DNA of 64,000 nucleotides. Source: Zygaena filipendulae (lineage: Eukaryota; Arthropoda; Insecta; Lepidoptera; Zygaenidae). Of the stretch, positions 16,701 to 63,964 are shown in pieces. Numbering within the stretch: the first letter of the stretch is position 1; each line of letters opens with the position of its first letter. Location: assembly GCA_907165275.2 (NCBI GenBank), contig OU015661.1:4967501-5031500 (forward strand). Direction: 5' to 3'. The translations under genes were made by a program, and so were the position numbers. The notes beneath the pieces are model-generated. The model made no database searches and was not told the origin of the DNA. It saw only the letters and a list, made by a program, of their open reading frames with translations.

Positions 16701-17672
16701 ATTATTATAGAATTTTTTTTCAATATGTTCTTCGCCTCACATTAAATTTTTAAGAAGATATTATGGTGTGTCATTACTATAATATTTTACAGCTATACCT
16801 TTCTCTTTTTTCATTTAAGACCAATGTCCGAAACGCATAAGAACAATTTCCTGCTTCTAACTTATTCGCCCAACACTAACATCAGGAGCGAAGAGAGCAA
16901 CAAAGAGAAATACTACCGCCACTCTATAACAGTGGAGAACGATTCGTTCGACAACTTGATGAGCATGCAGCACGGCAAGAAATGTGCACGCAAAATATCC
17001 TCAGACTACGTCAACACTATAGACCAAGCCGAACGGAGAGGCGAGAACTCGATACGGAGCATCGAATTCGCCAAAACTCGACCCTCCATGTCGGTTTTGG
17101 AGTATCAAAAGAAAAATCAGAAGTATCAAGAGGAGATGCTCCGATCGAAAATTCACACGGTCATGATGCCAGTTAAAGACTTTGGTATGCAGTGAATAAA
17201 GTTTTCGAATAACAAAATTTTCGTAAGGTTTTAGTTGTATCGGAGTTGTAAAGGACGATTGTCAATTGTTTGTCAGTCACAACTCACAACAAATTATTAT
17301 GTATACGTATTTTTTTATATAAGCAGTCTCACACGGGTAAGTTTCTAAATGCCCGAGATCAAAATAAGGCTATGTTATAGTCTTCCAAAAGTCCCGAGGC
17401 CACCTGTATATGGCTACATAGTTTACATATGGCTTTGCTATTAGAAATATGAACTTTTCTTTTTAAAAACTAATTAGTGTCTTAAATTTTCATGATGATC
17501 TGATCATTATAAGTTACAGCACAGATAATATAATACTATGTTACAGACTGTAACTTACAGTAATATTAATATTGGTTATTTTTTTCTGGTTTTAGATGAG
17601 AAGTCTTCTTTAGGCGGAGGAATACGACTGCCCGGCGATACTCCGCTTTATTCTTTATCGGAATGTGAGTAA
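10735..17672 (+). CDS. PPIL6: PPIL6-type inactive cyclophilin with a long C-terminal extension
   Basis: Sixteen exons: 10735-11020, 11527-11753, 11828-11890, 12033-12247, 12523-12802, 12898-13007, 13204-13440, 13634-13767, 14512-14560, 14638-14730, 14826-14864, 15047-15118, 15853-16008, 16090-16278, 16820-17184, 17596-17672. They total 2,592 nt (863 aa plus stop) with all phases consistent. Residues about 50-170 resemble the N-terminal region of human PPIL6, and about 172-315 form a cyclophilin domain (HRIVKDGWIQCGG, NKRG-like DKRGVLCMANNGR, QFFVLLQPAPW, YVAFGQL). Compared with cyclophilin A, Arg55, Gln111, Phe113 and Trp121 are kept, but Phe60, Met61, Gln63 and His126 are replaced by Trp, Ile, Cys and Tyr, so prolyl isomerase activity is doubtful, as in the family. 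The rest (about 540 aa) is charged and low in complexity, including an acidic stretch EYEPEEYSY and RRQTGFVR twice. The start at 10735 is a choice: an in-frame ATG at 10525 lies in a repeat arm, and ATG 10888 is a shorter option. Confidence 0.88.
13857..14165 (+). mobile_element. tRNA-derived SINE
   Basis: The head reads CCGATTGGCGCAGTAGG (pol III A-box type) and, about 40 bp on, CCGGGTCCGATTTCC (B-box type), matching the common lepidopteran SINE that opens CCGACCCGATTGGCGCAG. The tail is AT-rich; its exact 3' edge is not defined. It is not a functional tRNA gene because no cloverleaf acceptor stem closes. It lies in the eighth intron of the PPIL6-like gene. Confidence 0.75.
15341..15575 (+). 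repeat. CCGCGG-type dispersed repeat, second subfamily
   Basis: ACTAGCTGTCCCGCGCGGTT start, then GTTTCCGCGGAATTGTTCC, ACACCCTCCAAGTTTCAGG and a GATATAGATATATC-type simple tail. The same subfamily recurs at 45372-45640. It is in the PPIL6-like gene's intron 12. Confidence 0.78.
17195..17200 (+). promoter_or_regulatory. Possible early poly-A signal of the PPIL6-like gene
   Basis: If the last intron is not spliced, the frame of exon 15 runs on as GMQ and stops with TGA at 17193-17195; AATAAA overlaps that stop. This could give a transcript with an alternative C-terminus. Inference only. Confidence 0.4.
17513..17546. repeat. 20-bp core insertion flanked by GTTACAG duplication
   Basis: The core CACAGATAATATAATACTAT (17520-17539) sits exactly between two copies of GTTACAG (17513-17519 and 17540-17546). 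The identical core occurs at 21865 and 63904. It lies 74 bp before the last exon of the PPIL6-like gene, in the intron. Confidence 0.7.
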
Positions 17673-17940
17673 ATTAAATTATCTTTATAATGGCCTTAAA
17701 ACATTGGCTTTTTAAACTGAGAAGAATTTTTTAATCCTGGTACCATTCAAATAATATCACATTGACATCTTAATTACAGCCTAAATGAGAAGGTGGACAA
17801 TTTGGAGCTAAACAAATTACTAGTGTCATAACCATTATTTCAGAAAGATGAGACGAGGTGTTTTCAAATTAAAAACTACTAAATTGTATCATAATTTTTT
17901 TGTAATCAGTTTTATTGTAGAAATTAAAATTGTAACTTCA

Positions 17941-17950
17941 AATAAATAAA
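17941..17950 (+). promoter_or_regulatory. Poly-A signal for the full-length PPIL6-like transcript
   Basis: AATAAATAAA holds two overlapping AATAAA hexamers about 270 bases after the stop codon at 17670-17672. It is the first such signal after the final exon. Confidence 0.55.
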
Positions 17951-18449
17951 AAAACCTTTGATTATCACTGTAATTGAACTAGAAATTTCCCATCACATTA
18001 AAATATATCTATAATGTAAATACTACGCGTTTATTTTGTTTTGTTTTTTTCATTTTCACTACTATATTATCATAAATAATAATCCATCACAATTGTTTTA
18101 ATGTGTTTAACACATACCTATGCAATGAAATTTTTTTGGGAATAATCATTCTATATGCACTCATTATTATATTCAAACATACTAAAGCGTTCTGGGCTGT
18201 TATCGTTTTACTGTTTGTCTTTTCTACAGGATAGCAAAAAATCATATCCTATACCGTCATAGTTTGCAAACTCCGAGATTCTAAACATTATTTTACTGCG
18301 TTGGTTTATGTAACGCACCTATTAATTCACCAGAAAAGAAAAATCAAAAAGTTTTATTTCAAACGTAAAAATACCAAAATACTAGAAAGTAGCAAACCAG
18401 ACCATAGTTATGCTTATATCAATTTACTTTATCGTAAACAATTACATGT

Positions 18450-18492
18450 ATCTACTGCGGCTTATCTTAACCGCGGGTAAGCCGCAGTAGAT
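18450..18492. repeat. Hairpin, 15-bp perfect arms, in convergent intergenic space
   Basis: ATCTACTGCGGCTTA and TAAGCCGCAGTAGAT pair perfectly around a 13-base loop. It lies between the converging ends of the PPIL6-like gene and ABCB6. A small MITE remnant or an RNA stem near transcript ends are both possible. Confidence 0.75.
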
Positions 18493-18540
18493 ATTAAGTA
18501 GTATTAATAATAAGTCTCACAAAACTTTAAATTATTCAAC

Positions 18541-18546
18541 TTTATT
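18541..18546 (-). promoter_or_regulatory. Poly-A signal for ABCB6
   Basis: TTTATT on the plus strand is AATAAA for ABCB6, about 100 bases after its stop codon (18650-18648). The converging transcripts thus end about 600 bases apart. Confidence 0.55.
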
Positions 18547-18647
18547 ATAATTTACGTCACACGAATACATAATATACCCATAGACTAGCACCCTCCTCAG
18601 TCGACCGCTATTTTGTTCCGATTATTCCAGTTGTTTCCCTTCCTCTC

Positions 18648-21600
18648 TCAATGTCCGTGGCCGTGGGATATGGCGCCGTTGAGCTCGCTGCTGGGCGGCG
18701 GCCGGGGCTGGGCGTTGTTGTTGCCTTCGCCTATAACGTTGTTATTGTTGCCGTTACCGTTCCTATTCTCCAGCTGCTGCTGCCACATGGACGCGTAGAA
18801 ACCGTTCCGTGAGAGCAGTTCCTCGTGACTGGAATGATAAGTTTTTTTTTTCTAATAGTAAATTCTTATCTCACATCTGTCTATCTCATAAAAAGAAGTC
18901 AAAGTTATAATTTATTCAAATTTGGCCCTTAATGTGGCTCTTTTTAACGTCAATAAAATTACAGTTATTATGACAGCACCCATAAAATATCCACCTTTCA
19001 CAACTTTCTAGTGCTATGGCTGAAGAGAAGAAGCCGCGCAACAAACTCTCCAGTAGCACGCTGTCAGTTTAAAGTGAACAATGAGCCGAGAACACACTAT
19101 AGATACAATAACAACGACGCTCAGGGCTCATACTCTGACTGGGCAAATATGTGAACCAAGATAATGTAAAAGTCTTTAGTGTGCTTGGCACTCTGTTTAT
19201 ATGACATCGTGACTTCGAGACCAGCTCGTATGGTAGACAAATGGTAGACAACAAAAGAAGTAGGCCACAGCTATCAGCAGCGCGCGCGTTTTCGCCGTTG
19301 CAGCCGTGGCTGTGACCGAGGGGTAAGGCGCTAAAATGTACTCACTTTCCCCTCTCAATGATCTCCCCGTCTCTGAGCACGAGGATTTCGTCAGCGTGGA
19401 TGATCGTCGACAGTCTGTGGGCGATCATTATCGTCGTTCTGTTCGCGCACACCCGAGCTAGGGCAGCCTGAAACACGACAAATACATAATATGAAAAAAA
19501 AAAACATCAATGATCATAAATTGTTGACCGGTGGAGGTCGCAGCGAGTGGACGTCTGTCGCGTTTTTTATTCATTAATTCCATATTTTCACCACCGTTCA
19601 ACAGCCATTTTGTTTTCCAAGAAAGAAGCTGGTTTTCGAGAGAGAACCGTGTTTTATCTTGAGGAACAATCTAACATTGTCATTGGCGTTTAGCCATAAT
19701 TACTTTAATTGCTAAATATACGTACATTTCCAGAATTATATGCAATAAATCGCCATACATTGCCATTATTGAAGAAGAAAATCAGCGTCGTGGGACTATT
19801 TTCACGTCATAATATGCTGAGTGGTAGTCATAACATATATTCTTCGTTAGTTCAAGCCACACATTTATATTTTTTTTGTATCAAATAAACATTATTCTAT
19901 TCAAATATCCGCATGTCTGCTCGGCTTCATCTAACAGTATGCACTAGCCTCACCTGAATATTTCTCTCAGTGTTCGTGTCGAGAGCTGATGTAGCTTCGT
20001 CTAGTAAGACGATAGCCGGGTCCTTCAATATTGTTCGTGCGATAGCTATCCTTTGCTTTTCGCCTCCACTGAGTTTGAGTCCTCTTTCTCCGACCTGCAT
20101 ATATTTTGTTTTATGTAATTTAGGTAACTAAAATACACTGGCTTATTTTTTAATTAATTAACAGATATGCATGACTTTTGCTTATTCTTCTGATAGGTCA
20201 TATAAAATTTGTTGCAATTTCTTTTTTAAATATTAAATGTACCTGCGTGTCATAAGCATCAGGGAATGTAAGTATTTTATCATGTATATCAGCATTCTTG
20301 GCAGCCGATATAATGTCTGAAGTTGGTGCGCCCAAGCGCCCATATTGAATGTTGTATCTGTAAAGAAAACAATTATTAAATACTATATTTTGTTTCTTGG
20401 TTACAACTGCGTCTGTATCGGAAATCGGAATTACTCCGGGAACTCTTTATATCGTAATAAAAATATGTTACTCGGAGATTCTGTTGCTTTCTATCAGTGA
20501 CATAAATTTAAAAAAGGTTCGGTAGTTTTAGGAATTGAATTTCCCTTTATAATATTGGTATAGTTTTGTAGAACACCACGCGATGTCGTACGGCACCACA
20601 CCCCACCCGGCCATAGAGTAAGGTCACGATAAATATAGAAGTTAAAGCAGACGCCCACATCGACGAGACCCCAAAGCGGACGTCGCATACTGCAGCATTG
20701 CAACGTGGGCTTTGGAGTCTCGACGATGCGCGCATCTGTGTGAGTGTGCTGTGATCTGAGGGATGACTAGTGCTCTCTGGTGTGATATCTTTCCGAACGA
20801 CTATTTCGTCAGGTGGTTTGGTGGCACACCAGCGTGTTTCCGAACAGCTCATTTGAGGGCACACAAAGCACCCACGAGAATTTCGGAATGGCTAATGTGA
20901 GTCCGTGTGCTGTTTCAGAACGCACTTTTAGGCCGCGTTTCCCCAGAAATGTGCGAGAATGGGTAGCGAGGGTTGTTTTTGTTAAGAACCAATAGAATCA
21001 CTTAATAAAACCTGCGCTGAGCGAGACTAGGTAAACTAAGAGATTCTATTGGTTCTTACTTCCTCGATACCCATCCTCGCACACCCAGGCACGGTCTGAG
21101 GGTGGGGGGTGGTCACGGGGGACATGACCCCCTAAACGGTCTGAGGGTGGGGGGGGGGGTCACGGGGGACATGACCCCCCCCTAAAATCCATTCATTTTA
21201 TAACGTGTGCAATAAAATTGTGTATTGTTCAATTTACTCGACATAATATTATATTATTATCAGTGCCACCCCCCCCCCCAATTTCAGCCTGCGACCGCGC
21301 CTGCGCACACCTCTGGCGGAAACGCAGCCTCACTGTGGTAAGGTGGCGCGTACCTGACGGTGTTGTTGAACAGCACGGTGTCCTGCGGCACCACGCCCAG
21401 GCTGGCGCGCAGCGACGCCTGCGTCACGGTGCGCACGTCCTGCCCGTCCACCAGCACCGCGCCCTCGTTCACGTCGTAGAAGCGGAACAGCAGGCGCATT
21501 ATCGTCGACTTGCCCGCGCCGCTCGGACCGACCTGTCGCGTGCGGTTCGCATCGGGTTCAAATTAAACGAACAGCGCGAACCGTGATGACGTAAACACGC

Positions 21601-24600
21601 GGCGAGACGCCGAAGGGGACTGACGCCCAAAAAAATGGGCATGCTGACTAAATATTTTTTAGTCCGTCTTGTAGATTAATAAAAAAATATTGGACACGTC
21701 ATTCCTTTTCTTACGTAATCAAAAAATAATGATGATACATGCGTTTTATCTAAGTATTTTTTCAATAATCCGAAAAAGCAAAAAATACCTGTCTATTATT
21801 TTTTACTAACTGACGGACTAAATAGAATTTTGATTTTCGACCTTGTCATGCCCATTGCCGCTACCACAGATAATATAATACTATACTAGTACCGCTACCG
21901 ACGTGATCAATCCCGGTCTACATGTCACGCCTCGCACACTCGTTAATCCTAATTTTCTAAATGTAAAAGTGAGTTTGTTTGTTTGTTACGCTTTCACGCC
22001 GTAACGGCTCAACCGATCATCATGAAATTTTGCATGCACGTTGTCAGGGGTGCAGAGGTACTTTTTATCCCGGAATTCCCGCGGGAACTCCGAAATTACT
22101 TCGGGTGAAACCGAGGGGCACACAGCTAGTATTTAATAATAATTCTGTTGAATAAAAAAATAATAACTACTGAAACCGTTCTGACACCAGTAGGGGGAGT
22201 ACGAATTTTTTCGCTCCATCTGTCGATATCGTCATAATGTCAAAGAGTTTTTTCTGTATGGAAAACTGGATAGATGGCGTTGTTCACTTTCCATACAAAA
22301 AAAACGCTCAATATCGAAAGGACGAGAGCGAAAAAATTCGTGCTCCGGGTACTGTATAGAGACTAGAGTTAATATAAGTCCGAAATGCAAATGTTGTCAT
22401 GATCTCATGTAAATATCAAAAAAGCATTCTCATAACCTGGTGAAGACCACGGAAACGTAATGAGATTCTCTAGTGCAACCGCTGTCTAGCAATAAGGGAG
22501 TGCGCAGTCTTTCGGCTGGCACTCGCATGACGTATAAGTTGGATGGCATTATGCATAAGGCGGCGGCCGCTCACCAAGGCGACGGTGGCGCCGGGCGCGA
22601 CCTTGAAGCTGACGTCCTTGAGCACGAGCCGCTCGGGCCCGTAGCCGAAGCTGACTTGCTTGAACTCGACGCCGCCGCGCCGCACCAGCAGGTCGGGCGC
22701 GCCCGCCGCGTCGCGCACGTCCGAGTCGACGCGCATCAGATCGAACATGTTCTCCATGTCCACGAAGTTCCTCTGTATCGCCCTGCGAATGCGCGTGCGC
22801 ATGTGCATAATAAAAGTCAAATCTGATTTTACTTTACATATTATGCCAATTAATCTTATCTTAAAAATTATATTTACTTATGTATAAAAACCGTAACGTA
22901 TTTATTCAGCGGCTTCAATGCGTGTAATATTTGCACTAGCGGGAGCGGGATGAATGATATGGCTCGACAGCCACCAAAGGGGAAGCTTCCCGCCGGGCGA
23001 GGTGGAATGCCCGGGGAACCGCGGCTCCGACTGAACATCGTCGGAGGTCGTATAATATGCAGCGCAGTGTGAAACTTCGCTAGCGCGATTCAGGGCTTAC
23101 ATACATATAGCCAGTACTCGTCGCTTCGTTGTAGTTCCGAGTTCGTGACTTGTGGCGTAGGGGTCGCCACAGAACTCTCGTTTGTGTGCGTTTGTATGTT
23201 CAGTATTAAGTATTCTAAATATCATGTCCCTAGCATCAGTGGGCAAGACGATTTTCTTTGCAGTTGAAAAAAGTACAAAACTGCGAACTTGAAATACGCC
23301 TTTCGCCAAGTTTTCGTTTGCTTTCATTTACTTCATCTGTGTTTACTGTCCAGTAGGTGTGATCAAAGTGAAGGTGAATTAAAATCTTAAATTCTCGCAA
23401 CCTATGTCGATTATTACTCAAGGGTCGAGGGTACATGAAGTCCTAAATAGAAAGGATGCATTGCGATAACAAGTTTTTACAAACATACCTGTAGTAAGTG
23501 CCGAACCAATTCAGGGGTACGTATAGCTGAACTATATAAGACGCGAACAGTACGTAGTCACCCACTGTTAGCGTGTTTTGAACCACTAGAGAAACGCACA
23601 GTAGAGATCCCGCTAACAGACCTGTAAAAACATAGAGAAATATTTTTTAGTCTTGGCCACAGATCGAAATAAATGAACATTTTTTTTCAAATTCAACCTC
23701 GATAAAAACCTCCTCATTTCCTAACACTAAATGAAATACAATAAAATATTCAGTCACGCAGGAACAACTAAACTCGAAAGCTTTACTCAAAGTCAAAGTC
23801 AAATAATTTTATTCAAAGTTGGCCCATGTTGTAGCTCTTTTTGCCATCAATAAAATTAAAACTTTTACGACAGCACCCAATGATAGAATGTCATTGACAG
23901 CACCCATAAAATTTCCACCCTTACTAGTATTATAAAATCAATTATAACTTAAAAAGATGGAACTGTGTGACTGGCGCGCTCTTGTAAAGAATAGTCACTA
24001 ACAGAATTTCAACTACAAATCTATCTTTATCGAAATATACATATGACTTTTCAAGTACTTTCTATAGCAAGTAGAGGAAGTTTGGAAAAGCATAAAAGCG
24101 TTAGGTACTTCAATAAGTTATCTTCACACCAAAGATAAACCAACAAAACCGCTATAAAGGGTATATAAATATTACTTATCTTAAACCATTAAACTACACA
24201 TTACATTAAATCATACACTTACCACCACATATTATAATATTCTGCACTGTATTGAGCATATTCAATGTGACCAGAGATTTGAATTCTTCTGTCTGGAAAA
24301 GCAATAACCAAAATTAATTATCCAAAATTATAAACTGTACCTTATGGAATATAATATTAGGTTCAAAATCAACTGCACCTGATAGTTGACAATTGCATTT
24401 TTGTACGTGACCACTTCGTAGGATTCGGCGCAGTAGTATTTAACGGTTTCGTAGTTGAGCAGCGAATCCACGGACTTGGCTTTTTGCTCGTTGTCGGCGA
24501 GGTTCATGCGCCGCTGGAACTTCGTGCGCCACTCGGTCACCGCTATTGTTGCAACTGTAAATTCGGAATGAATGTATGAATTGTTATAATAATACTATTC

Positions 24601-53600: not shown

Positions 53601-56600
53601 GATTAACATTATTCTCTATTTTTATTAAACATGTTAATATTACTCGGTATGCTTTTGGTGGTAGTGGTATTTGTACTTACTAATGTTGGATATAGATAAA
53701 AGCAAATTCTTTTCTGTAATAAAAATAACGATGGAAGTAGTTATATGGAACATCGAAAACATATATCAAAGCAATGTAATTATAATATTTAAAATACAGT
53801 GTAACGTAATCATAAACACTGCAATTGAAATGCTTACGTCAGCAATAGGAGTCGTACGGTGTTAAAATTAGGCTTAATGTATAAACAACATTTTTCCAGA
53901 TTAGAAATTGAATTGTACCGGTACAAAATTCAATATTCCCAATAACATCGACATAATTCTGCTGAAAAAACACCTACCTTATACTATAAACGTGAAAATT
54001 AGGATTTTCGACATGCTTCCGAAAACCACGGAGAAAAGTTAGTAAAACGTCAAGGCTAAATACCTACTAAAACATAATATACCGACTACTTTATTCACCA
54101 CAATAGTCTCCTTTAAGAGCGAAATTTCGTTGGTTCCGTCTATAACTTCAGCATTTGAGGAAAATCTGGAGCATTTTTCATATCTGCTTACAGGGAGCAT
54201 GCGCTGGCGGCTAAATACGAAAAATTCGACATTAAAGTCGTACATTTTGCCATCGTGGTCAACAACTTGTAATACGGTGTCTGGAAAAACTCTTCAAAAT
54301 CACAGACGCGTGTTGGTTTTCATCATTACTATGATCAAGCGCGGCACCCACGAGCACATCTTCCTCATATTCCATTTCAAATGTTCATCCAAAATACTCA
54401 ATATACATATTCATATCTTTGAATATGTATATTGAGTATTATCTCGTGTTAGCCGGTATAAATATTTTTTTACTTTGCGGCATTACAAAGCGTTTTCAAT
54501 ATTCTTTTTGGAATAGAAGTCGAATTCGGGTCACCATCGCTTCTCGTCGACAAAACAATATAATATTTCGACGAGAATCGACAAAATGACTTGATAAAAT
54601 TTTATCGTGTTGCGCATCTTAGCCCCGCAGAACGTTCAGCATTGTCGATGTTTGTACTGCTACGTTTGTAAATTCAGTAATTCATTATTTCACGTTCGTC
54701 GGTTTATTTGGATGAAGAATCCATAACTCTTGTAATACTATTGCTTTTCCAGAACGGTACTTTTTCTCCCTCAAAAAATAAAAACTTCACATTTTCCTGT
54801 TTTGAGATAATAACTTGTCATGTATGTTCTTGGTTAACACATACAGAGTAGTTTTTATTCCGATAAAATAATTCTCTACGCTCATCCAATAAAAAAGTAG
54901 GCGGTAGTATAACGTTAGTAGCGTGATACTTAAGCCCTAAAAAAGTAAAAGCCATCGATATCGTTTCGCGTGCATTGGTAGGTATGTACTGTGTCGTAAA
55001 TCTATGCCGTAAACCATAAAAAAGAAGCCCAATTCTGGGTTTATTATCTTTCTCACATCAATTTATTGCATAATATTCAGAAACCCAAGTCTTTCCAGAG
55101 CGTGAAGGATATCATTATAACTGCATCGTCAATAGCTCATGTTGAAATTCTCATTACAGGAACTACTATCACCATCACCCGCTATTAAATAATAATATAA
55201 TTCATTTAGAAAGAAATCAACAGCAGAATATGCATACCTAATAGAGTAAATACAAATTTTTGATGATATCCCTGCAGCAATTACGTATTTTCCCTTTTTA
55301 CTTTCTCTCTCTTCGGATTCTTAATATGAAAGCACCTACGAGCTAGCATAACATTCTGTTAGGATAATCTAAAATATATTTTACGAACTATTATATTATT
55401 GTATTCGCATTTACGAATTATTTCCGCTTCAATATTTCTGCCATTTTTTTATCTATGCATACTTTTGCCTATAATGTAAAATTCAATTATCAGACTGACC
55501 TGATGATCATTGATCAATGCTTAGACCTAACCGCTGAATAAAGTTGAAATTACTCACCCATATTCTTTTTAAACAGACTAGAGTTGTAAATTAAGTTGTT
55601 TTTGGAAATTCAACTTCTAGGAACTGGCTAGGGTGACCTCCTTCCCCTGGAAAGACCTTTAAGCTCATACGGAAGTAGTTACCGTTAGTTTTGATACAGA
55701 CATGAAAATAGATATTTGGGGCCTTTTCAAATAAAAAACACGTATTCTGGCAATTTTGATTCCTCAAATTGTATGATTTCATACATGCCTATTAATCCGT
55801 ACTAATATTATAAATGCGAAAGTAACTCTGTCTGTCTATCTGTATGTTACGCATTCACGCCTGAACTGCTCAACTGATCATCATGAAATTTTGCAGACAC
55901 GTTGTCAAAAAAGGACATAGGGTACTTTTAATCCTGGAATTTTTGCGGGATCTCCGAAATTAACGCGGGTGAAACCGCTGGGAACAGCTAGTATTAAATA
56001 AATTGAAAAAATTACGTGGTTGAGTTTTATAGATTTTGTTGGGTGAATTTCGGTATTGATGAAAATATGTGTACAGCGATACTCATAAAGTAAAATACCA
56101 GTGTGCCAAATTACATACATATACATTGAGCCTTTTATGCGTGAATTGCATGATTTAAACACAAATATCCAAACATTCACTTTTATAATATTAACAGAAT
56201 AATATTATACATGATATCTCATATATTACATGTTGAGACTACATGATTTTATACGCTTGTTTTGTTTTTGTTGCAGGCTATTTATTATTTAAGGAATTTT
56301 GTGAACAGACGTCAGAAGAGCCGGTCCCACAATTAAAGTTTTATGAGGAGGTAACAATGAAGCTTCAAATAAAATAAAACCGACATGAAATATTATATTA
56401 TGGTTACTAATCGTTAATATTTTGTTTATTTCGCTTTAAACAGATAAAGTTATATGAAAAGCAAGAATGTCCTGAGGAAAGGCGGCGTATTGCGAGAGAC
56501 ATATATGACAATTTTATTATGAAGGAACTCCTAGCACATTCTCATGTAAGTATTTACTCTTTCCCGTTTATGAAGTCTTCGTGTGAGACTACTGTGAGGT

Positions 56601-58004
56601 ACAAACGATGTTATTTCATTTTCTATCCTTTAAATATTTGGTGGAAATCTCTCGGTGATATTCTACGTGATTGTAAAACCTTAATTTATTTTTCGTTGCA
56701 GGATTATTCCAAAGAATGCGTGGCACATGTACAAAAGTATTTATTGAAGCACGAAGTACCGCCGTCTTTATTTGAAGTAAGACTTTACTAAGTTTTCATA
56801 AAATACTATGAACTAAGTTGATATCAAACTTTTACTGTGCAATTTTATAATGTTGATTGATATTTTAGCCGTACATTGAGGAAATATTTCAACATCTACG
56901 GGGAGAGCCGTTCAAAAACTTCTTAGAAAGGTGAAGATAAATAAAATACATTACAAAATCATTTTGCACCGTCACACGTATGAATAAAGTTTGTTGATAA
57001 CATGTGTTTTTGTGTTTACAGTGACAAATACACGAGGTTTTGTCAATGGAAAAACTTAGAATTAAACATTCAATTAACGATGAACGACTTTAGCGTTCAC
57101 CGCATTATTGGTCGGGGGGGCTTCGGCGAGGTAAGAGACAGCTGAAGTTTACGTCCAGACCCTTACAGCGCGTCGGTGAAATTAAACCCACGCTGCACTA
57201 TATCTAATCTAAGATATTTTATTTAAAAAGAAATTTTTGATAATAATTCTGCAAGGTTTAATTGAAAGCCGCCAAGTTTAACAGTAACAGTTATTTTTTG
57301 AAATTAACTTTAATTGCTGCAGAATTATCGTAAAAAAATAGTATTCACCGTTTTTTAAATATTGTAAATATTAGGTAGGTATAGACGATAACATGATTTT
57401 TCAAAACGGGTGGCGCTAGTTTCATCCTTGTAAGGGTCTTGGCACTGTTATGCTGGTATTCCTTGCATCAGCTATTTAATTCCCAGATAGTTGGAGGCGT
57501 AATGCAAGCTTCCGAAAGTTGTAAGGCTAGACTTAAGCTTATTACATTTAATGGGTACCTAAGTGACCTTTATAACAGCTTTATGAACTGGTTAGACTAG
57601 TTATTTTTATCAATGTCGTTCGAAATTTGGATCAACAAAAAGTTTATAACTTCATATTTTGATGTTGATATTGCGATAGTGTCCAAACATTATAATTATT
57701 AAGTTAGTCATAAAAGTTTACATACCTACATTATAAGCTAAAGAAAAAGAGTTTCAACAATTTTAAATTTTCACCCGTACCTATTTCGTTAGTAGAGCTA
57801 GCAAAGCTACTAGGGCTTTATGAATGGGCTAGAAAATTCATGATGTCAAGTTGCGTTTCCCGCGCGCAGGTATACGGCTGCCGGAAGGCGGACACCGGCA
57901 AGATGTACGCGATGAAGTGCCTCGACAAGAAGCGAATCAAGATGAAACAGGGCGAGACGCTCGCGCTCAACGAGAGGATTATGCTCTCTTTAGTCAGCAC
58001 CGGG
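38611..58004 (+). CDS. Gprk1: G-protein-coupled receptor kinase, GRK2/3 type (5' part)
   Basis: Eight exons: 38611-38723, 39455-39531, 56277-56350, 56444-56545, 56702-56776, 56869-56930, 57022-57130, 57870-58004. They give 249 codons in one frame, and the remainder lies right of base 64000. The start [20 protein letters not shown] and motifs such as [31 protein letters not shown] and [20 protein letters not shown] identify the beta-adrenergic receptor kinase group (fly Gprk1, human GRK2/3). The sequence contains the RGS-homology domain (about 30-185) and the start of the kinase domain: glycine loop GRGGFGE at 198-204 and the ATP-binding lysine in YAMKCLDKK at residue 220, the same number as in human GRK2. 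The kinase phosphorylates active receptors at the plasma membrane, with recruitment by G-beta-gamma. The C-lobe and PH domain are not in the window. Intron 2 spans 16.7 kb and is loaded with mobile elements. The ATG context CTCAAAATGGCG is favourable. The gene diverges from ABCB6. Confidence 0.97.
39633..40168 (+). repeat. Dispersed repeat, AATCTGCGATTCTGTACATT family, copy 2
   Basis: ATACTATAATAAAAGAGTAG and AATCCGCGATTCTGTACATT start, CTGCCTGTCTGTCTGTCTGT, ATCTACTGAACGGGTTGTCA, ending GGATGAAACCGCGGGCACCA. It lacks the 226-bp MITE found in copy 1 at the corresponding place. It begins about 100 bp after GRK exon 2. Confidence 0.75.
40969..42219 (+). pseudogene. Decayed Tc1-like transposase with nested insertion
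   Basis: The left part begins [21 protein letters not shown], typical of the Tc1 N-terminal helix-turn-helix. A broken middle reads, across frames, [19 protein letters not shown] and [18 protein letters not shown]. The C-terminal part reads [17 protein letters not shown], the box carrying a catalytic acid in Tc1 transposases, and ends IDSMNNRC, stop, [12 protein letters not shown]. Stops and frameshifts are plentiful, most of the central catalytic region is missing, and a MITE occupies 41528-41990. Terminal inverted repeats could not be placed with confidence. It sits in GRK intron 2 and cannot make an active enzyme. Confidence 0.85.
41528..41990. mobile_element. MITE with CGTTCCGTG-type ends, copy 2 (nested in Tc1 remnant)
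   Basis: Reverse-orientation copy of the 37717-38162 element. The left edge GCGCGTTCCGTG and right edge CCCACGGAACGCAC form the inverted ends, and the same 18-bp palindrome is at 41608-41625. It interrupts the Tc1-like remnant just before its [13 protein letters not shown] segment, so it is younger than that element. Confidence 0.82.
43433..43943. mobile_element. Foldback MITE of about 510 bp
   Basis: Almost the whole element is an imperfect palindrome. The outer left arm reads TATACACACCGGCAGAATTA and is mirrored at the right end by TAATTCTGCCGGTGTGTATA. Pairing continues inward through the AGCGGAACAT and GGCAGAGTATAGAAATA segments and more loosely to a centre near 43690. It has no coding capacity and lies in GRK intron 2. 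Confidence 0.85.
44370..45050. repeat. Fragments of CCGCGG-type repeats
   Basis: Partial pieces such as TACTAGCTCTTCCCCGTGAG (about 44370), GCGTGTGTTTCGGAATTCCC (about 44884) and ACCCGCGTGAGTTTCGAAAT (about 45001), separated by unrelated AT-rich DNA. No gene is visible in this part of GRK intron 2. Confidence 0.55.
45057..45300. repeat. Microsatellites plus LINE-tail-like repeat
   Basis: A (TAGAA)n run at about 45057-45078 and an (AC)n run at about 45095-45112 precede a stretch containing GGCAGCTGACTCAGCATATG and ending in AAATACAAAAAAAAA. The poly-A end suggests an old retroelement tail. Confidence 0.6.
45372..45640 (+). repeat. CCGCGG-type dispersed repeat, second subfamily
   Basis: GTCCCCCGCGGTTTCACCCG start, GTTCCCGCGGAATTATTCC core, ACACCCTCCAAGTTTCAGG, ending in TATAGATAGATATAGATATA simple sequence. 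Closest to 15341-15575. Confidence 0.76.
45965..46180 (-). repeat. Dispersed repeat, AATCTGCGATTCTGTACATT family, copy 3 (partial)
   Basis: Reverse orientation: ACTAGCGGTGCCCTGCGGTT, then CATGTCAATCCGTTCTGTAG and CTCTTCTTTTATCGCCTCTC. The far end with the family name motif is missing. Confidence 0.65.
46507..46675. mobile_element. Short MITE with CAGGATGT ends
   Basis: A 169-bp element with ends CAGGATGT and ACATCCTG flanked by TA on both sides (CTATACAGG and CCTGTATTTA). It resembles the CAGGGTGTCC element at 34241 in end sequence and TA flanks but is otherwise unrelated. No coding capacity. Confidence 0.65.
47581..47784 (+). repeat. 204-bp dispersed/direct repeat, left copy
   Basis: Reads ATTTGGACGCAGATAAGCAA to CTCAAAATTTCTCCA and is repeated in the same orientation at 49538-49743 with about 15 differences, roughly 93% identity by eye. 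No coding sense. Element class unknown. Confidence 0.82.
48187..48425. mobile_element. MITE with GCCGCACTCTGAG-type ends, copy 1
   Basis: Outer ends GCCGCACACAG and CTCTGAGTGCGGC form inverted repeats. A second inner inverted pair (AACGTTCATTAAATTAATG with CATTAATTTAATGAACGT) makes a nested stem. The same organisation recurs at 63706-63964. It lies in GRK intron 2. Confidence 0.8.
49538..49743 (+). repeat. 206-bp dispersed/direct repeat, right copy
   Basis: Second copy of 47581-47784. The flanks of the two copies differ, so each is more likely an insertion of the same element than a product of local duplication. The (TTTA)n run at about 49766-49790 follows. Confidence 0.82.
50229..50400 (+). 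repeat. CCGCGG-type dispersed repeat
   Basis: ACTAGCTGTGCCCCGCGGTT start and a well-preserved core GAGTTCCCGCGGGAATTCTG; then TTCTCTGTACCCCTGACAAC and CATCCAAATCCGTTCAGCCG. The tail continues into related text up to about 50705. Confidence 0.8.
50839..50856. repeat. LINE target site duplication, left copy
   Basis: AATATCTTGGCATCTAGA occurs here and again directly after the poly-A tail at 52414-52431. The two 18-bp copies are identical, which marks the exact insertion edges of the LINE. Confidence 0.92.
50857..52413 (+). mobile_element. 5'-truncated jockey-type non-LTR retrotransposon
   Basis: A 1.56-kb insertion in GRK intron 2 that ends in a run of A residues and is bounded by an 18-bp direct duplication (50839-50856 and 52414-52431). 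It holds the reverse-transcriptase part of ORF2 and a short 3' untranslated stretch. The 5' part, including ORF1, the endonuclease and the promoter, is missing. This is the usual outcome of target-primed reverse transcription. The identical duplications and open frame suggest a fairly recent insertion. Confidence 0.94.
50858..52306 (+). CDS. Reverse transcriptase fragment of jockey-type LINE ORF2
   Basis: About 482 codons stay open from the truncated 5' edge to TAG at 52304-52306, with no native start codon. Reverse-transcriptase blocks appear in order: [60 protein letters not shown] and the catalytic ATYADDTAI with its two aspartates. A C-terminal thumb-like region follows ([25 protein letters not shown]). 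The YADD box and the APWF-type tail fit the jockey clade, known from family knowledge rather than a search. Without an endonuclease or ORF1 it cannot move by itself. It lies in the sense direction of the GRK host gene. Confidence 0.9.
   Translation, partial: VQDETTETEIDDILGQDFQLDFPIKHVTPKEIQRSIKSLANNKTPGFDYIDKRVLGELPRKGIIYLTMLSNGIIRTGCFPSLWKVSQIIMIHKAGKPQHDVTSYRPISLLPTVPKLFERILLRRLLKVLKERSVIPDHQFGFRKEHGTVEQVHRVCTVIRRAMERKQYCSAAFLDIQQAFDRVWHKGLLCKIKCLLPHSFYGVLKSYLSDRIYQVRESDATSSFHSIEAGVPQGSVLGPVLYTIYTADLPQSDNVAVATYADDTAILASRQCPIEASSALQKTLNDIQKWLLKWRINASASKSVHVTFSLRRGNCPPVTLGSNELPHRDSVRYLGMHLDRRLTWKNHIQSKRNEMNIKYRDMHWLLGRNSKLSLDKKLLIYNTVIKPIWSYGIQLWGFACNTNIMMVQRAQNYILKQLCDAPWFITNNEVHSNLGVATVRDEIKAHCTKYNARMAVHPNQLAMQLIKPENGQRLKRRKIQDY
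52414..52431. repeat. LINE target site duplication, right copy
   Basis: Second identical copy of the 18-bp duplication, immediately after the poly-A run. The DNA that follows (GTTATGGGCAAGGAATGTTG, from about 52463) resembles the reverse complement of DNA near 26590-26635 in ABCB6 intron 4. The LINE therefore landed beside an older unidentified repeat. Confidence 0.9.
52590..52762 (-). repeat. CCGCGG-type repeat pieces
   Basis: Two minus-oriented pieces in series, GAATTCCGAAACTCACGCGG and GAGTTCCGAAACTCACGCGG, the second ending GATGAAACCGCGGGACACAG. They follow directly after the LINE locus. Confidence 0.7.
54393..54440. repeat. Hairpin, 21-bp perfect arms
   Basis: Arm AATACTCAATATACATATTC(A) at 54393-54413 and its exact complement at 54420-54440 enclose only six bases. 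GRK intron 2. Likely a tiny palindromic element. Confidence 0.8.
55799..55993 (-). repeat. CCGCGG-type dispersed repeat
   Basis: TACTAATATTATAAATGCGA start, CATCATGAAATTTTGCAGAC middle, AACGCGGGTGAAACCGCTGG and AACAGCTAGTA end. It lies about 280 bp before GRK exon 3. Confidence 0.8.
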
Positions 58005-58952
58005 GTATGTATAAGTTAGGCCCGCCGCTCACTGGCGGGACGGTGCGGAATTTTATATAAACTGTGATGATGAGAATACTTAGTTAAGGAAATCTGTCAA
58101 AATCACAAATCAAATGAAATATAATATTTCCATATTAATAATAGTAGTACCATAGTAGCAAAATTTGAAGAACAGAACCTTAATTAATAGTCAATCAAGT
58201 CCTAAGTAAGGGTCGTGTAGATTATTTAGTGTATAATGGTTCGTAATAGTTGAAAAATTTTAACAAAAAAATTAAAACCAACTTCCAAAAACACAAAAAT
58301 GATTTTACTAAAAAGCTAAAAATATGCGTAATAACGCATATGTAAATGTCTATACGAAAAAGCAAACTAACAATTAGAAGCTTATATAATAAAATAACGA
58401 ACATTTCTTTCATCGGTCAATAGTTACAATTAAAATTCGGAAGAATATTAAATTTGGTGGTATCATTGAAATCGTTTAAAAAAACTTCTTCAGAATTTAT
58501 GTGACAAGCTGATGTTGACTTCATAGCGTCAAATACATCGTTTTCATTTGGTTTACCCGGAATACTATAATGAAAATAAAGCCATTTTACATTGATTTCA
58601 AAAGAATTGACGCGGATTTGTTAGTGTCCTCAAAGAGTCTTGCATTCTGCAAATTTTTCACTACTGATTTACCTATCCACAGTTAACATGCGTCAATGGA
58701 TGTTTCTCTTTATAAAAGCGCGCAAGGTGAACGCCTCGTTCTGTTCTCACGCTGCTAATGTTTATTGACCCGGTTTATTTCTGAACAATTGTTGAAACAT
58801 TTTATTTATAACGTGCTTCTTTAAACCTCCCTGCTCGTCATTTTTTTACCTTAAGTGGCGAGTCAAAGAAAACAAGTATAATACAATCTTATTTGAAAAA
58901 TAAATTATACATATACATAGACACTTCTCTTGCTTTCTTGTCTTCCATCCAG

Positions 58953-59065
58953 TTCTAGTGATAGTTCTACCACAGACAATATTATGTTAACTAAAGAGCT
59001 CATGTGGCCGGGGCAGGCGCGTCACGGTTACATGTTAGACCAAACTTTCTTTGCTGGCATCCCAA
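58953..59065 (+). other. Candidate exon of unknown gene in GRK intron 8
   Basis: A 113-base open segment follows a long pyrimidine tract ending CCATCCAG and precedes a GTATGT donor. Read with one leading base it encodes SSDSSTTDNIMLTKELMWPG and then QARHGYMLDQTFFAGIP. It does not match GRK, and GRK exon 8 ends in phase 0, which would put a stop at once in this segment. It may be an exon of another gene, a rare alternative exon, or chance. I do not recognise the protein. Confidence 0.3.
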
Positions 59066-59349
59066 GTATGTTCTCCACAATATTCCCAAAACTGAGAGTT
59101 TTGAAAATAGTGACTTGGTTAAAACGTTATTACATTTCGTTCGTGATCAATAGTTTGTGTACGAAAACCACCCGGCGACACTGGTTTTCATCTGTTATAC
59201 TAAAATTGAGTCGATGTTCCTCCTATGTGTTTGTGGTTCTACCTACTGGTAACTTACATAAGTAAGTGAAAAAATCCAATCTGTTTTACTGTGACGTAGT
59301 TGTAGACGTTGGATGTTTTTTTCCAAGCAGATCTACTGTTACAATCCTT

Positions 59350-59544
59350 ATTCATATTATTAATGTGAAAGTGAGTTTGTTTGTTACGCTTTTACGCCCT
59401 AACTAACGGCTTAACTGACCATCATGAAATTTTGCATGCACGTTGTCAGGGGTACCTACAGAGCATTTAGGGTACTTTTTATCCCAAAATTCCCGCGGGC
59501 ATTCCGAAACTCGCTCAGGTGAAACCGCGGGGCACAGCTAGTTA
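59350..59544 (-). repeat. CCGCGG-type dispersed repeat
   Basis: ATTCATATTATTAATGTGAA start, CATCATGAAATTTTGCATGC middle, CTCAGGTGAAACCGCGGGGC and ACAGCTAGTTA end. Intron 8 of GRK. Confidence 0.8.
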
Positions 59545-61811
59545 TTAATAGAGTTTGATGGAATGGGGTTTCTGAGGTGGGCAGAGGCTAGAGACCTCTA
59601 CTTGCCTCTACTACCTCTTTACACTAATCATTCTTTGCATGCATGGCTGTCGGTCTCTATTGCTTTTGATGTTTGCTCCTGTGGATGTCCTGTTGCCGAT
59701 CGATTAAATTTCCTCCTCGGCGACCGTTTCTGACATAATTATTATCCTCTCACATATTCTTCTTGGTCAGATGGAGCAGGTATGTTGTATTGACTTTTGG
59801 CTGCCAAAGTATTTTTCTACCTTGTGATCGTAGGCACATTTTTTGTATCAATATTTACTGTCTACAATCTACATTGCATATTATAATTATGCATGTAAGT
59901 AAATTTATTAAATCATATTTATTGTAATTGTAACGGATACAGTGTAACAGATAAACACAATATTATTCTAATTATTATCTATCAGCAGACCACCACATGT
60001 ACTTTTTTATCTATCATTGGTATTATTGGCGTGACGTGATTCTACTCGTATACATTACAATTCCTGGTTTTTCATTTGTTACCTACGCAGTTTGTAATGG
60101 AAGTAGTATAAACAACTAACTGTTTTATATACCCATGGTTTGATGTACGTGTTATGAGGAATCTTCATACATAGGTACGTATTTTTAACCGACTTCCAAA
60201 AAAGGAGGCGGTTTTCAATTCGACTGTATTGTTTTTTTTTCTACTTTAAACTGTCCACTCCTTGAGAATTAGAACTTTCAAACTCAAAAAGCTACGTTGT
60301 CCCTGAGTAACATAGGCTATAATATATCCAGATTACAATATAGCCGCTATATTGTAATCCGGAATTTCCGCGGGTACTCCGAAATTATCGCGGGTGAAAC
60401 CGCGTGGTGCAGCTATTATAAAACCTTAAAAGAAATCATCTACGAGGTTTGGGACGGAGACCATATATTACGGCTCAATCTCCTTTTGCATACTACACGC
60501 TGTCAGCGATACAGAGGAGGACATAGGTACTTTTTGTTTCTGAATTGCCACGGGCACTTCGAAATTAACGCAGATGAAACCGCGGGGAACACCTAGTGAT
60601 CTGTGATACTATATGTCTCAGAAAATATACATGATAAACTTCAATGTCACTTTCATTTTCTAGTTCTTTTAGCGTTTTCCTCTTTGGAACTTAAAGTTTA
60701 GAATTGGTGTAAGTTGATGTACCTTCAGATTTCATTTAGTTGTAGTATTTCTATAGGGTAGCAAGATAATTAACCTAAGTTATTACTGTTTATCAGGAAG
60801 CGGTTTTTTATAATACAGAAGTATGAACGTCACAATAATAATTTTATTATAAAAATACAAATTAACTTCAGTTATCAGTGTAAATCTATACCTGGTTCAG
60901 ATTGCTTATCGATTGCGAGCTTTGATTCGTCATTGACAATACACCTATCATTTTATGACTATGTATCAGGCGGAATAGCATTGGGAACATAAACGATATC
61001 CGACCAATTGGACTGAAACGAATTGGCTCGCCCTCAATTTGTAGTGTTCCAATCCGCTTTCGTCTCGTTTTACAATAATTATTATAACATTCGAATACAA
61101 TTTTTCAGATTTCCATCTTAATTCCTCTGTAATTGTTACTGTAGCCATTTTTAAAAGTCAAGTATAGTTTTTGAAAGGAGATTGACAGGGTATGGACCAA
61201 ATGCTGCCCAGGAGTGGGACTACCTTGACTGAGTTCCTTGCATTGCTTTATATTGGAAAAAATTTTTTTTTTCAAAATCGGTCCCGGAGAAAAAAAATTA
61301 ACGTCAGTTTTGTTTGTACGTTTTATATAGTATGTATGTTCCCCGATTATTCGAAGACGACTGGACCGATTTGAAAAATTCTTTTTTTGGTTGAAAGGGT
61401 ATACTTCCGAGGTGGTACCAATGTTATCAAGTAAGGATCTGATGATGGGATATTGGAGAAATGGAAGGAACTTATCAAATATTATAGGCACACCTACCAG
61501 TTTTGGGTATTCTTTGGAATATATCATGCATTTGCTTTCGGATAGCACCATTTAGTGAAGTGAAACTGATGATGAAGACAACAGATGACCAGCGGAACTA
61601 CTTAATAATAGGTATTTCACAGGTTGCGATTCGATTACTTTAAGGTGGTTGCTGAGCAGTTTATGCTCATCACAGTGCATGTGGTGAAGCTGGCTGATAG
61701 TGTGTATCAGTAGAACTCCTCAAAAATATACATCCCTCCATCGGGAAAAGCATTTATTTATTTTTATTGTAATTAAGTATTTATTTTTACCCAATAAATA
61801 ATACCTATTTT
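59545..61811. other. Gene-free intron stretch
   Basis: Apart from the composite repeat at 60297-60595, a fragment of the common ACCGACTTCCAAAAAAGGAG repeat at 60188, and a reversed 157-bp-unit fragment at 61194, I see no exon or RNA gene. The longest open frame (61105-61551, minus) has no recognisable content. Confidence 0.6.
60297..60595 (-). repeat. Composite of two CCGCGG-type repeats
   Basis: A first unit ends ATCGCGGGTGAAACCGCGTG near 60410, and a second ends AACGCAGATGAAACCGCGGG at about 60585. The arrangement and the AGGTTTGGGACGGAGACCAT text match the tandem pair at 25985-26372, so the composite itself seems to have spread as one unit. Confidence 0.7.
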
Positions 61812-61965
61812 TCCCATAACTCCTGGGATGGAATTAGACGCGCTTTATTTTACTGACTACTACTACTCTTAGGAACATATTGTACTATGTCTACATCCTG
61901 GGCAGCACTTGGTCTACCTTCCATGCAAGTTTATTGTTTCCCAATAAATTTATTTATTTTTATTG
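61812..61965 (+). repeat. Diverged outlying unit of the 157-bp repeat
   Basis: Starts ACTCCTGGGATGGAATTAGA, with ACTATGTCTACATCCTGGGC and CAGCACTTGGTCTACCTTCC, but no adjacent second unit. A reversed fragment (GGACCAAATGCTGCCCAGGA) is at 61194-61213. Confidence 0.78.
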
Positions 61966-62133
61966 CAGTTTGTGATCACAGGTATAATTATGTTTGGTAT
62001 TATTACAGAGTATGTCATCCCACTGTGACCTGTCCATTTAGACGTACAAAACATTAAAAAAAAAACAAATTTAAAAATCACAACAACCACAACCAATAAA
62101 ACATTTAAAAATCTCCACAAAAACTTTTTTTTT

Positions 62134-62760
62134 CACGACTCCTGGGATAGAATTAGGCGCCCTTTATTTTACAAACTACTACTATCCTAAGGAACATAAT
62201 GTACTATGTCTACATCCTGGGCATCACTTGGTCTACCTTCCATGAATGTTTATGGTTTCCCAATAAATCTCAACACAAACTTTTTTTTTTCACGACTCCT
62301 GGGATAGAATTAGGCGCCCTTTATTTTACAAACTACTACTACCCTAAGGAACATAATGTACTATGTCTACATCCTGGGCAGCACTTGGTCTATCTTCCAT
62401 GAATGTTTATGGTTTCACAATAAATCTCAACAAAAACTTTTTTTTTTCACGACTCCTGGGATAGAATTAGGCGCCCTTTATTTTACAAACTACTACTACT
62501 CCAAGGAACATAACGTACTATGTCTACATCCTGGGCAGCACTTGGTCTACATTCCATGCAAGTTTATTGTTTCCCAATAAATCTCAACAAAAACTTTTTT
62601 TTTTTCACGATTCCTGGGATAGAATTAGACGCGCTTTATTTTACAGACTACTACTATCCTAAGGAACATAATGTACTATGACTTTTTTCTGGGCAGCACT
62701 TGGTCCACTCTTCATACAAAGATTGGCATTGTCATTTCGCAATTATTCGGTTTGTAGGTA
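62134..62760 (+). repeat. 157-bp tandem repeat array, four units
   Basis: Units start at 62134, 62291, 62448 and 62606, each with CACGA(C/T)TCCTGGGATAG; the periods are 157, 157 and 158 bp. Every unit contains GAACATAATGTACTATG-like text, CCTGGGCAGCACTTGGTC and a poly-T tract before the next unit. The last unit diverges after about 100 bp. A single diverged unit is found upstream at 61812-61965. Open frames of 67-74 aa here are the repeat read through, not genes. Intron 8 of GRK. Confidence 0.9.
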
Positions 62761-63705
62761 CCTACCTAAGCGAATAAATCGATGAGTTGCATCAATTGAT
62801 TATTATTATCATCTAATAATAATCTCTGAATAAATGCTTTTTCTTTCTTGTGAATTTTGTTTTTGTGATTTGTAATTGATTCTTAGCGGTTTTTACCTTT
62901 TACCTGTTTGTGTTTTTTAATCAGCTTCTGTATCTGTCCCCGCGATTTAACATGTATTTCGAGAATCCCTTCGGGAATATTTGCACGTGAATATACCAAA
63001 TTTCATCCATCGCGGACAAACAACGTGACACGTGATTAAATATATTAAGATTAAGAAGATATGATAAGTAGCCAGCAAATGTCAAGGATAGCGAACGGTT
63101 AAATCAAGTAGGCGTCAAATTTGCCCTTTAGTAGTTATATTAAATGAAAATAGCTTACAAAAATTTATGCTTGCGAGAAAATAAACATTCTTTATTTCTT
63201 TTTCTTGCGAGTAATGTTGAGCAAATTCTTTATGGATTTTCTTTATTTCCCGAAGTACCTATATATCTATCAAAGAAAAAAACAAACCGGGGTGGCACAT
63301 ATAGCGAAATTTATAAAACGTAACAAACGGTTCGTTGTTTAGTTAAAGCTATTTATAGGTCCCTTCGTACAGTCAAGTTGCGGCGTGAATATTCTTTCAC
63401 TACGACCTTGTTTTAAAACTTTACGCTGTGTGGTTGTTGTGGTAATAATGGAAACGTTTCAGCATTGTGTAAACGCGTAGTCGGACTTACCATTACTCAA
63501 ACTCGTTTTTAGCGCCGAAGTTTGACCGATGTGACGTATGAAACCTGATAAGTTGTTTCAAATGTCAATTTACTAGTTTTAGTTTAATCAACCGTATGTT
63601 GCTACAACCCGTGATCCTAGAAGCTCTAAAAATATTTTTTCTGATATGATTATCATAGTTGTTTAAGAATGCTGCAACCCCTGTAAAGGGAAACTAAGTT
63701 TAACC
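62761..63705. other. Gene-free intron stretch
   Basis: AT-rich DNA with a short CCGCGATTTAAC fragment of the CCGCGG family near 62940. No exon of the GRK C-lobe (expected after STG at 58004) is present before the window ends. Confidence 0.6.
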
Positions 63706-63964
63706 GCCGCACTCTGAGTCGATTTTAATGATTACTTAGTTAAGTATACATTTTAAAGACAGAACTGCCGCAATCGGACAAGTTTAATAAATTAATGTTA
63801 ATCGGCATTTAACTAATTAAGTTACATCTCATTAAATTTCAATCAACATTAATTTACTGAACATCTCTGATTGCGGCAGTTTGTTTTAAAATCTATACTT
63901 GACCACAGATAATATAATACTATGACTTAACTAAGTAATCATTAAAGTCGACTCTGAGTGCGGC
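63706..63964. mobile_element. MITE with GCCGCACTCTGAG-type ends, copy 2
   Basis: Outer arms GCCGCACTCTGAGTCGA and TCGACTCTGAGTGCGGC are perfect inverted repeats (17 bp) and continue with GATTACTTAGTTAAGTATA. An inner palindrome around GAACTGCCGCAATC lies between them. The right arm is broken by a 28-bp extra segment at 63901-63928, described separately. It lies in the eighth intron of GRK. Confidence 0.83.
63897..63928. repeat. 20-bp core insertion inside a MITE arm
   Basis: Identical core at 63904-63923 with GAC before and G after, bracketed by ACTT at 63897-63900 and 63925-63928. The opposite arm of the host MITE predicts CTATACTTAACTAAG here without the extra bases, which supports a real insertion. 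Confidence 0.72.

What the first reader, a model, noticed from the sequence alone, without database searches (positions are those of the whole stretch)
17513..63928. A 20-bp sequence inserted three times, each between short duplications
CACAGATAATATAATACTAT is identical at 17520, 21865 and 63904. The three sites are flanked by GTTACAG/GTTACAG, CCGCTAC/CCGCTAC and ACTT/ACTT. Beyond the core, only 0, 7 and 4 extra bases lie between the duplications. At 63904 the host MITE's other arm gives the pre-insertion sequence. Independent insertions of one tiny sequence with target duplication fit no standard transposon size. Candidates are a minimal element mobilised in trans, or filler DNA copied repeatedly from one source during break repair.
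Basis: seen in the sequence. Interest (0 to 1): 0.8.

Follow-up and report, generated by a model that had tools for sequence, protein, structure and literature searches.

The report
Thousands of one-ended transposon excision scars
The repeated 20-base insert is most likely a scar left where a jumping gene was cut out of the DNA, and this genome carries thousands of such scars, a record of where one transposon family has been.

Summary
The exact 20-mer occurs 1897 times in the window's own genome (reversed control 0). Copies start sharply at CACAG, end raggedly, and often sit between exact 7-bp duplications: 48 of 89 sampled short copies, 0.8% in a control. The third window site has ACTTGAC/ACTTAAC, not ACTT/ACTT, and an empty paralogue. 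The 20-mer is the left tip of a non-coding transposon of about 2 kb with some 60 copies. Short copies keep at most the first 27 nt: 27-mer 358 times, 30-mer 57. The right tip leaves nothing (13-mer 61, control 5). A P-element family in the same genome leaves two-ended scars with 7-bp duplications and up to 27 nt of either tip. Best reading: excision scars made by a P-superfamily transposase that cuts one strand 27 nt inside the left end (17 nt in Drosophila P), with a nearly flush right end. Not shown: which transposase acts, and excision rather than aborted insertion.

The parts
17513..17519 (+). left 7-bp target-site duplication GTTACAG
17520..17539 (+). scar 1: first 20 nt of the element's left end
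17540..17546 (+). right 7-bp target-site duplication GTTACAG
21858..21864 (+). left 7-bp target-site duplication CCGCTAC
21865..21891 (+). scar 2: full 27 nt of the left end, CACAGATAATATAATACTATACTAGTA
21892..21898 (+). right 7-bp target-site duplication CCGCTAC
63897..63903 (+). left target-site duplication ACTTGAC (one base different from ACTTAAC)
63904..63924 (+). scar 3: first 20 nt of the left end plus one extra G
63925..63931 (+). right target-site duplication ACTTAAC; the empty paralogue in L038:498-587 reads ACTTAAC

Best explanation
The micro-inserts are excision scars of a cut-and-paste DNA transposon mobilised by a P-superfamily (THAP9/Galileo-like) transposase. The non-coding element of about 2 kb inserts as TSD7-[CACAGATAATATAATACTATACTAGTA|CAGATGCCTCATCTC...GAGATGAGACCCCATG]-TSD7. 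On excision the transposase cuts one strand at the outer left boundary and the other 27 nt inside, so the donor keeps a 27-nt single-stranded piece of the left tip. At the right end both strands are cut at or very near the boundary. The 27-nt tail is trimmed and joined to the right-hand duplication, leaving TSD - up to 27 nt - TSD. Shown: the anatomy, counts, 7-bp duplications, 27-nt cap, one-sidedness, shared target motif, and two-ended scars with the same cap in a P family of the same genome. Inferred: which strand is cut where, that a P-type transposase acts on this family, and that the event was excision.
For: Left-tip counts fall stepwise: 12-mer 5204 (control 165), 15-mer 3756 (control 11), 20-mer 1897 (control 0), 27-mer 358 (control 0), 30-mer 57 (control 0). 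56 of the 57 30-mers are places of the 42-mer search; C21:7533978 is the exception. Exact 7-bp TSD in 48 of 89 short copies, 36 of them exactly 7; control 0.8%. Retained length in these 48 is 14-27 nt; 35 have no filler and 13 have 1-15 filler bases, several resembling the tail itself. Of 20 scars with all 27 nt, 12 have the TSD directly after base 27 (7 exact, 5 with one mismatch). Where one TSD base differs it is the junction base in 9 of 16, as nibbling predicts. Right-tip 13-mer 61, control 5, about the number of long copies. Six of eight long copies read have a clear 7-bp TSD. Target motif xYxxxRx in 76 of 87 scars, 24 of 30 long copies and 6 of 7 scars of the P family; window background 25%. 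A nested P element (PF12017, E 1.1e-7) with 7-bp TSD CTAGTAC lies in L089. Its family leaves 6 two-ended scars of 36-45 bp with exact 7-bp TSDs and one one-ended scar (L117), keeping up to 27 nt of a tip in L115 and L116.
Against: No autonomous partner was found: of 27 PF12017 places only the nested one lies within 10 kb of a long-copy left end; the next nearest is about 12.5 kb away (compared by eye). The two tips are not good inverted repeats of each other (the local alignment score is reached by 26 of 1000 shuffles). One-ended scars are unlike the mostly two-ended scars of the P family, so a flush right end is an extra assumption. 25 of 89 short copies have no 7-mer within one mismatch, and 6.6% would reach exactly one mismatch by chance. 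7 of 20 scars with 27 nt have no duplication within one mismatch. A presumed end of another P group shows no scar excess (6 copies). The nested protein's match to a solved P transposase is not significant (E 0.23). Aborted insertion would leave the same product.
Confidence: 0.78

Rival explanations
1. Aborted insertions: the left tip's 27-nt single-stranded extension is joined to a 7-bp staggered target, repair synthesis copies up to 27 nt of it, then the complex falls apart and the target is sealed. No full element was ever established there.
For: Gives the same product, cap, raggedness and target motif. Left-tip 15-mers outnumber long copies by about 60 to 1.
Against: The two-ended scars of the P family in the same genome are the expected excision product. 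It needs frequent reversal after both target strands are cut (inference).
Confidence: 0.13
2. A free-standing 20-27-bp mobile unit inserted directly in trans.
For: Short copies are far more frequent than long ones.
Against: The right end is ragged (14-27 nt retained) with filler in 13 of 48, so no defined unit exists. The short copies stop at or before the point, base 27, beyond which almost only long copies continue.
Confidence: 0.03
3. Interrupted gap repair: after excision the gap is partly refilled from another copy's left end and then joined.
For: Known for P elements as a source of internal deletions (recalled).
Against: Synthesis would not be expected to stop at 27 nt so sharply (358 27-mers, 57 30-mers), nor to start only from the left.
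Confidence: 0.03
4. 3' ends of a heavily truncated LINE or SINE.
For: One sharp and one ragged end, with duplications.
Against: Fixed 7-bp duplications (36 of 48 exactly 7); long copies end at a second defined terminus, CATG, and the two checked have no open frame of 120 codons inside the element.
Confidence: 0.01

Closest known systems
Drosophila P element (P superfamily)
   Same: Cut-and-paste; one strand cut at the element end and the other well inside, leaving long 3' extensions (PMC7776569, passages only). Termini CA...TG (recalled).
   Different: 17-nt stagger at each end and 8-bp TSD in Drosophila P; here 27 nt at the left only, and 7-bp TSD.
Galileo (P superfamily, Drosophila)
   Same: Mostly 7-bp TSD with consensus GTANTAC in six Drosophila genomes (PMC4168063, passages only), compatible with the xYxxxRx seen here.
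   Different: [quoted passage not shown] the tips of this family are not clear inverted repeats.
P family with 764-aa open frames in this genome (TIR CAAATACTATATAAACTCTACCGAGTTAATACGCACAGCT)
   Same: 7-bp TSD, similar target preference, scars keeping up to 27 nt of a tip.
   Different: Symmetrical TIRs and mostly two-ended scars (6 of the 7 scars with a duplication).
Zebrafish THAP9 / Pdre2
   Same: P-superfamily excision (PMC10983969, passages only).
   Different: 8-bp TSD (figure legend in PMC7776569); its stagger was not found in the passages seen.

Membership tests
P superfamily of DNA transposons | Transposase with THAP / P-element domains encoded by the element or its autonomous partner | tested here: inconclusive
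   Two long copies checked have no open frame of 120 codons inside the element. The genome has 27 PF12017 places, 18 in open frames of 600 codons or more, but none within 10 kb of a long-copy left end except as a nested element.
P superfamily of DNA transposons | 7- or 8-bp target-site duplication | tested here: met
   6 of 8 long copies; 48 of 89 short copies exact, control 0.8%
P superfamily of DNA transposons | Palindromic target preference | tested here: met
   xYxxxRx in 76 of 87 scars and 24 of 30 long copies against 25% background
P superfamily of DNA transposons | Terminal inverted repeats at both tips | tested here: inconclusive
   The tips share only CA/TG and a displaced CTCATCTC; an 82% inverted copy of the left 28 nt lies inside the element at 1653-1680.
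P superfamily of DNA transposons | Long staggered cleavage, element tips left behind at the donor | tested here: inconclusive
   Indirect only: 27-nt cap at the left, nothing at the right. No biochemistry.
Non-LTR retrotransposon (LINE/SINE) | Variable-length TSD and one open-ended 5' truncation | tested here: not met
   Fixed 7-bp TSD, 27-nt cap, defined second terminus

The most novel reading that the evidence does not exclude
P-type transposases of this lineage cut 27 nt, not 17 nt, inside the element, and one family has evolved an asymmetric pair of ends, one long-stagger and one flush. Each departure then leaves a one-ended, recognisable scar, and the genome holds a countable record of some 3700-5000 past transposition events of a family that now has about 60 long copies.
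Probability: 0.6. Interest if true: 0.75.

Novelty: new variant of a known kind. Interest (0 to 1): 0.62.

Why it matters
Excision scars of DNA transposons are usually too short to find genome-wide (recalled). Here they are mostly 15-27 nt of a defined sequence between 7-bp duplications, so departures can be counted and mapped. Their ratio to resident copies (about 60 to 1) gives a handle on how often a cut-and-paste family moves compared with how many copies persist. The 27-nt cap, seen in two families, predicts a P-type transposase with a cleavage geometry different from that of Drosophila P, which is testable biochemically. Repeat annotation would probably miss such insertions or leave them as unexplained indels.

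Tried and rejected
LINE/SINE 3' end: first idea, rejected on the fixed 7-bp TSD and the second terminus. Autonomous partner: the two long loci read whole (L089, 4.0 kb between tips; L110, 6.7 kb) are 2-kb elements carrying other insertions, not coding parents; the 3.8-kb copy at C7:4711040 was not read. Elements lacking the 27-nt tail: the inner-tip pattern has 67 places. 60 of these are places of the 42-mer search; the left flanks of the other 7 were read. Four keep a recognisable tail with small indels or substitutions (L090, L092, L094, L096) and three a shorter or more diverged one (L097, L098, L099), so no clean tail-less class was found. Another P group (838-aa frames): an 18-mer from its presumed end occurs 6 times, no scar excess. 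A third group (902-aa frames): its end was not settled. Empty sites: of 39 short copies with a duplication only two gave paralogues spanning the junction in the DNA held (window 63904 cleanly; L004 with a small gap); two further hits, from L073, match the tip itself and do not count.

Papers: exact 20-mer, 0 papers; P element + Lepidoptera + target site duplication + 7 bp + superfamily, 0 papers; P element + non-homologous end joining + excision + 17-nt + inverted repeat + Drosophila, 0 papers. Other searches. Three papers were seen by passages only (PMC7776569, PMC10983969, PMC4168063); the rest only as search listings. No listing or passage seen reports 27-nt P scars, but I did not read the papers whole and subscription papers are not held, so this is weak.

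Sampling limits: the 91 copies come from the first 9.6 Mb of contig C1 and the window. 15-mer-only places beyond C1:7.80 Mb were not fetched while 20-mer places run to C1:9.54 Mb, so long scars are slightly over-represented. Copies with identical flanks (such as L014/L015) were counted once, and copies too near the end of a fetched stretch were skipped. Two long copies were excluded from the TSD count. One search uses 87 scars, not 89, because it removes duplicates by a shorter key and needs more flank.
Full report
The observation. CACAGATAATATAATACTAT is exact at 17520, 21865 and 63904. Genome-wide it occurs 960 + 937 = 1897 times in the 366-Mb assembly that holds the window; the reversed control gives 0. 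The first 12, 15, 20, 27 and 30 bases of the left tip occur 5204 (control 165), 3756 (control 11), 1897 (0), 358 (0) and 57 (0) times.

The copies. Reading outwards from the sharp left edge, short copies follow the same sequence for up to 27 nt and then, in many, run into the right-hand duplication. Of 91 distinct 15-mer copies from contig C1 and the window, 2 are long and 89 short. In the 89, the best-matching 7-mer to the left flank has 0, 1, 2, 3 and 4 mismatches in 48, 16, 13, 10 and 2 copies. With left flanks dealt to other copies, 0.8% are exact and 6.6% have one mismatch. Of the 48 exact duplications 36 are exactly 7 bp and 12 extend further (8 to 15). Retained lengths in the 48 run from 14 to 27; 35 have no filler and 13 have 1-15 filler bases. 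Two of the short copies match the element for 28 bases; a duplication that begins with C does this, as at window 21865. In the 16 single-mismatch cases the differing base is the one at the junction in 9. Of 20 further scars carrying all 27 nt, 12 have the duplication directly after base 27 (7 exact, 5 with one mismatch), one has it 6 bases later, and 7 have none within one mismatch.

The parent element. With up to 3 mismatches, 61 places continue through base 42 (54 exact). 52 of the 61 have a right tip within 12 kb, 45 of them at 1985-2199 bp (two of the 52 share one right tip in a tandem pair on C10). Of 30 such places read for about 1.5 kb, 28 carry the same interior, and two (L039, L053) leave it after about 120 and 74 nt. 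The element ends ...GAGATGAGACCCCATG. Of eight long copies read to the right end, six have a clear 7-bp duplication, L063 is unclear, and for L065 the alignment stopped before the end. So the 20-mer is the left tip of an ordinary-sized transposon.

One-sidedness. The right-tip 13-mer occurs 61 times against a control of 5, about the number of long copies. The left tip has thousands. In the 48 clean scars no junction shows CATG, the last four bases of the right tip, before the duplication; one filler of six bases ends in ATG.

The internal control. One long copy (L089) carries a nested P-superfamily element: PF12017 at E 1.1e-7, 7-bp duplication CTAGTAC, inverted repeats of about 40 bp. The first 16 bases of that repeat occur 26 times in the genome (control 1). 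Twelve of these are six inward-facing pairs spanning 36-45 bp, each between exact 7-bp duplications: classical two-ended scars. They keep up to 27 nt of the left tip (L115) and of the right tip (L116). A seventh scar is one-ended with 25-27 nt retained (L117); an eighth place (L118) has no clear duplication. Thus two families in one genome share the 7-bp duplication and the 27-nt cap. Drosophila P leaves 17-nt extensions and 8-bp duplications (PMC7776569, passages); Galileo has mostly 7-bp duplications, GTANTAC (PMC4168063, passages).

Targets. The motif xYxxxRx is met by 76 of 87 scars, 24 of 30 long copies and 6 of 7 scars of the P family, against 25% of window 7-mers; the stricter SYNNNRS by 37 of 87, 12 of 30 and 3 of 7, against 3.8%. 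Frequency matrices of scars and long copies correlate at 0.73. Scars and full insertions therefore come from the same kind of targeting.

Repeated hits. L073 holds three scars in a row, separated by ACTATAG (the outermost left 7-mer is GCTATAG), retaining 20, 20 and 12 nt. Two 27-mers on C5 start 34 bases apart, which equals 27 + 7. This fits reuse of one target; slippage of a scar-plus-duplication unit is an alternative.

Why only the left tip. The tips share CTCATCTC, beginning at base 35 from the left end and base 9 from the right end. If the inner cut is set by distance from that motif, it falls at base 27 on the left and within about a base of the boundary on the right. This is an inference from weak similarity: the best local alignment of the tips is matched by 26 of 1000 shuffles and lies elsewhere. 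An 82% inverted copy of the left 28 nt lies inside the element at 1653-1680, which suggests that an older right end was replaced by one further out.

What is not shown. No transposase has been tied to this family. Excision and aborted insertion leave the same letters.

After the required check I corrected counts (35 filler-free scars, 60 shared inner-tip places, 6 of 8 long copies with a clear duplication), added results against the reading, and moved the cleavage row of the membership test to inconclusive; the odds did not need to change.

Noticed in passing
L089:2465-3465: A P-superfamily element (PF12017) with inverted repeats of about 40 bp is nested in a long copy of the 2-kb element; the same repeat tips bound 3.3-kb stretches holding 764-aa open frames on C20, C22 and C25.
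   Followed up: yes
G000, 27 PF12017 places: 18 of 27 P-element transposase matches lie in open frames of 600 codons or more, in several distinct groups, so P-type transposons look recently active in this genome.
   Followed up: partly
L073 (G000:C1:6282404-6282630): Three scars in tandem separated by the same 7-mer, with different retained lengths (20, 20, 12).
   Followed up: partly
L110:3240-4070: An inverted pair of open frames sharing the same 90 residues (Cys-containing) lies in the insert of a 6.7-kb copy; unidentified.
   Followed up: no
window 17520-17595: Scar 1 lies about 50 bases upstream of a possible splice acceptor (TTTCTGGTTTTAG), so perhaps in an intron; read by eye only.
   Followed up: no
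L104: A short derivative joins a left-tip-like sequence almost directly to the right-hand part of the element.
   Followed up: no
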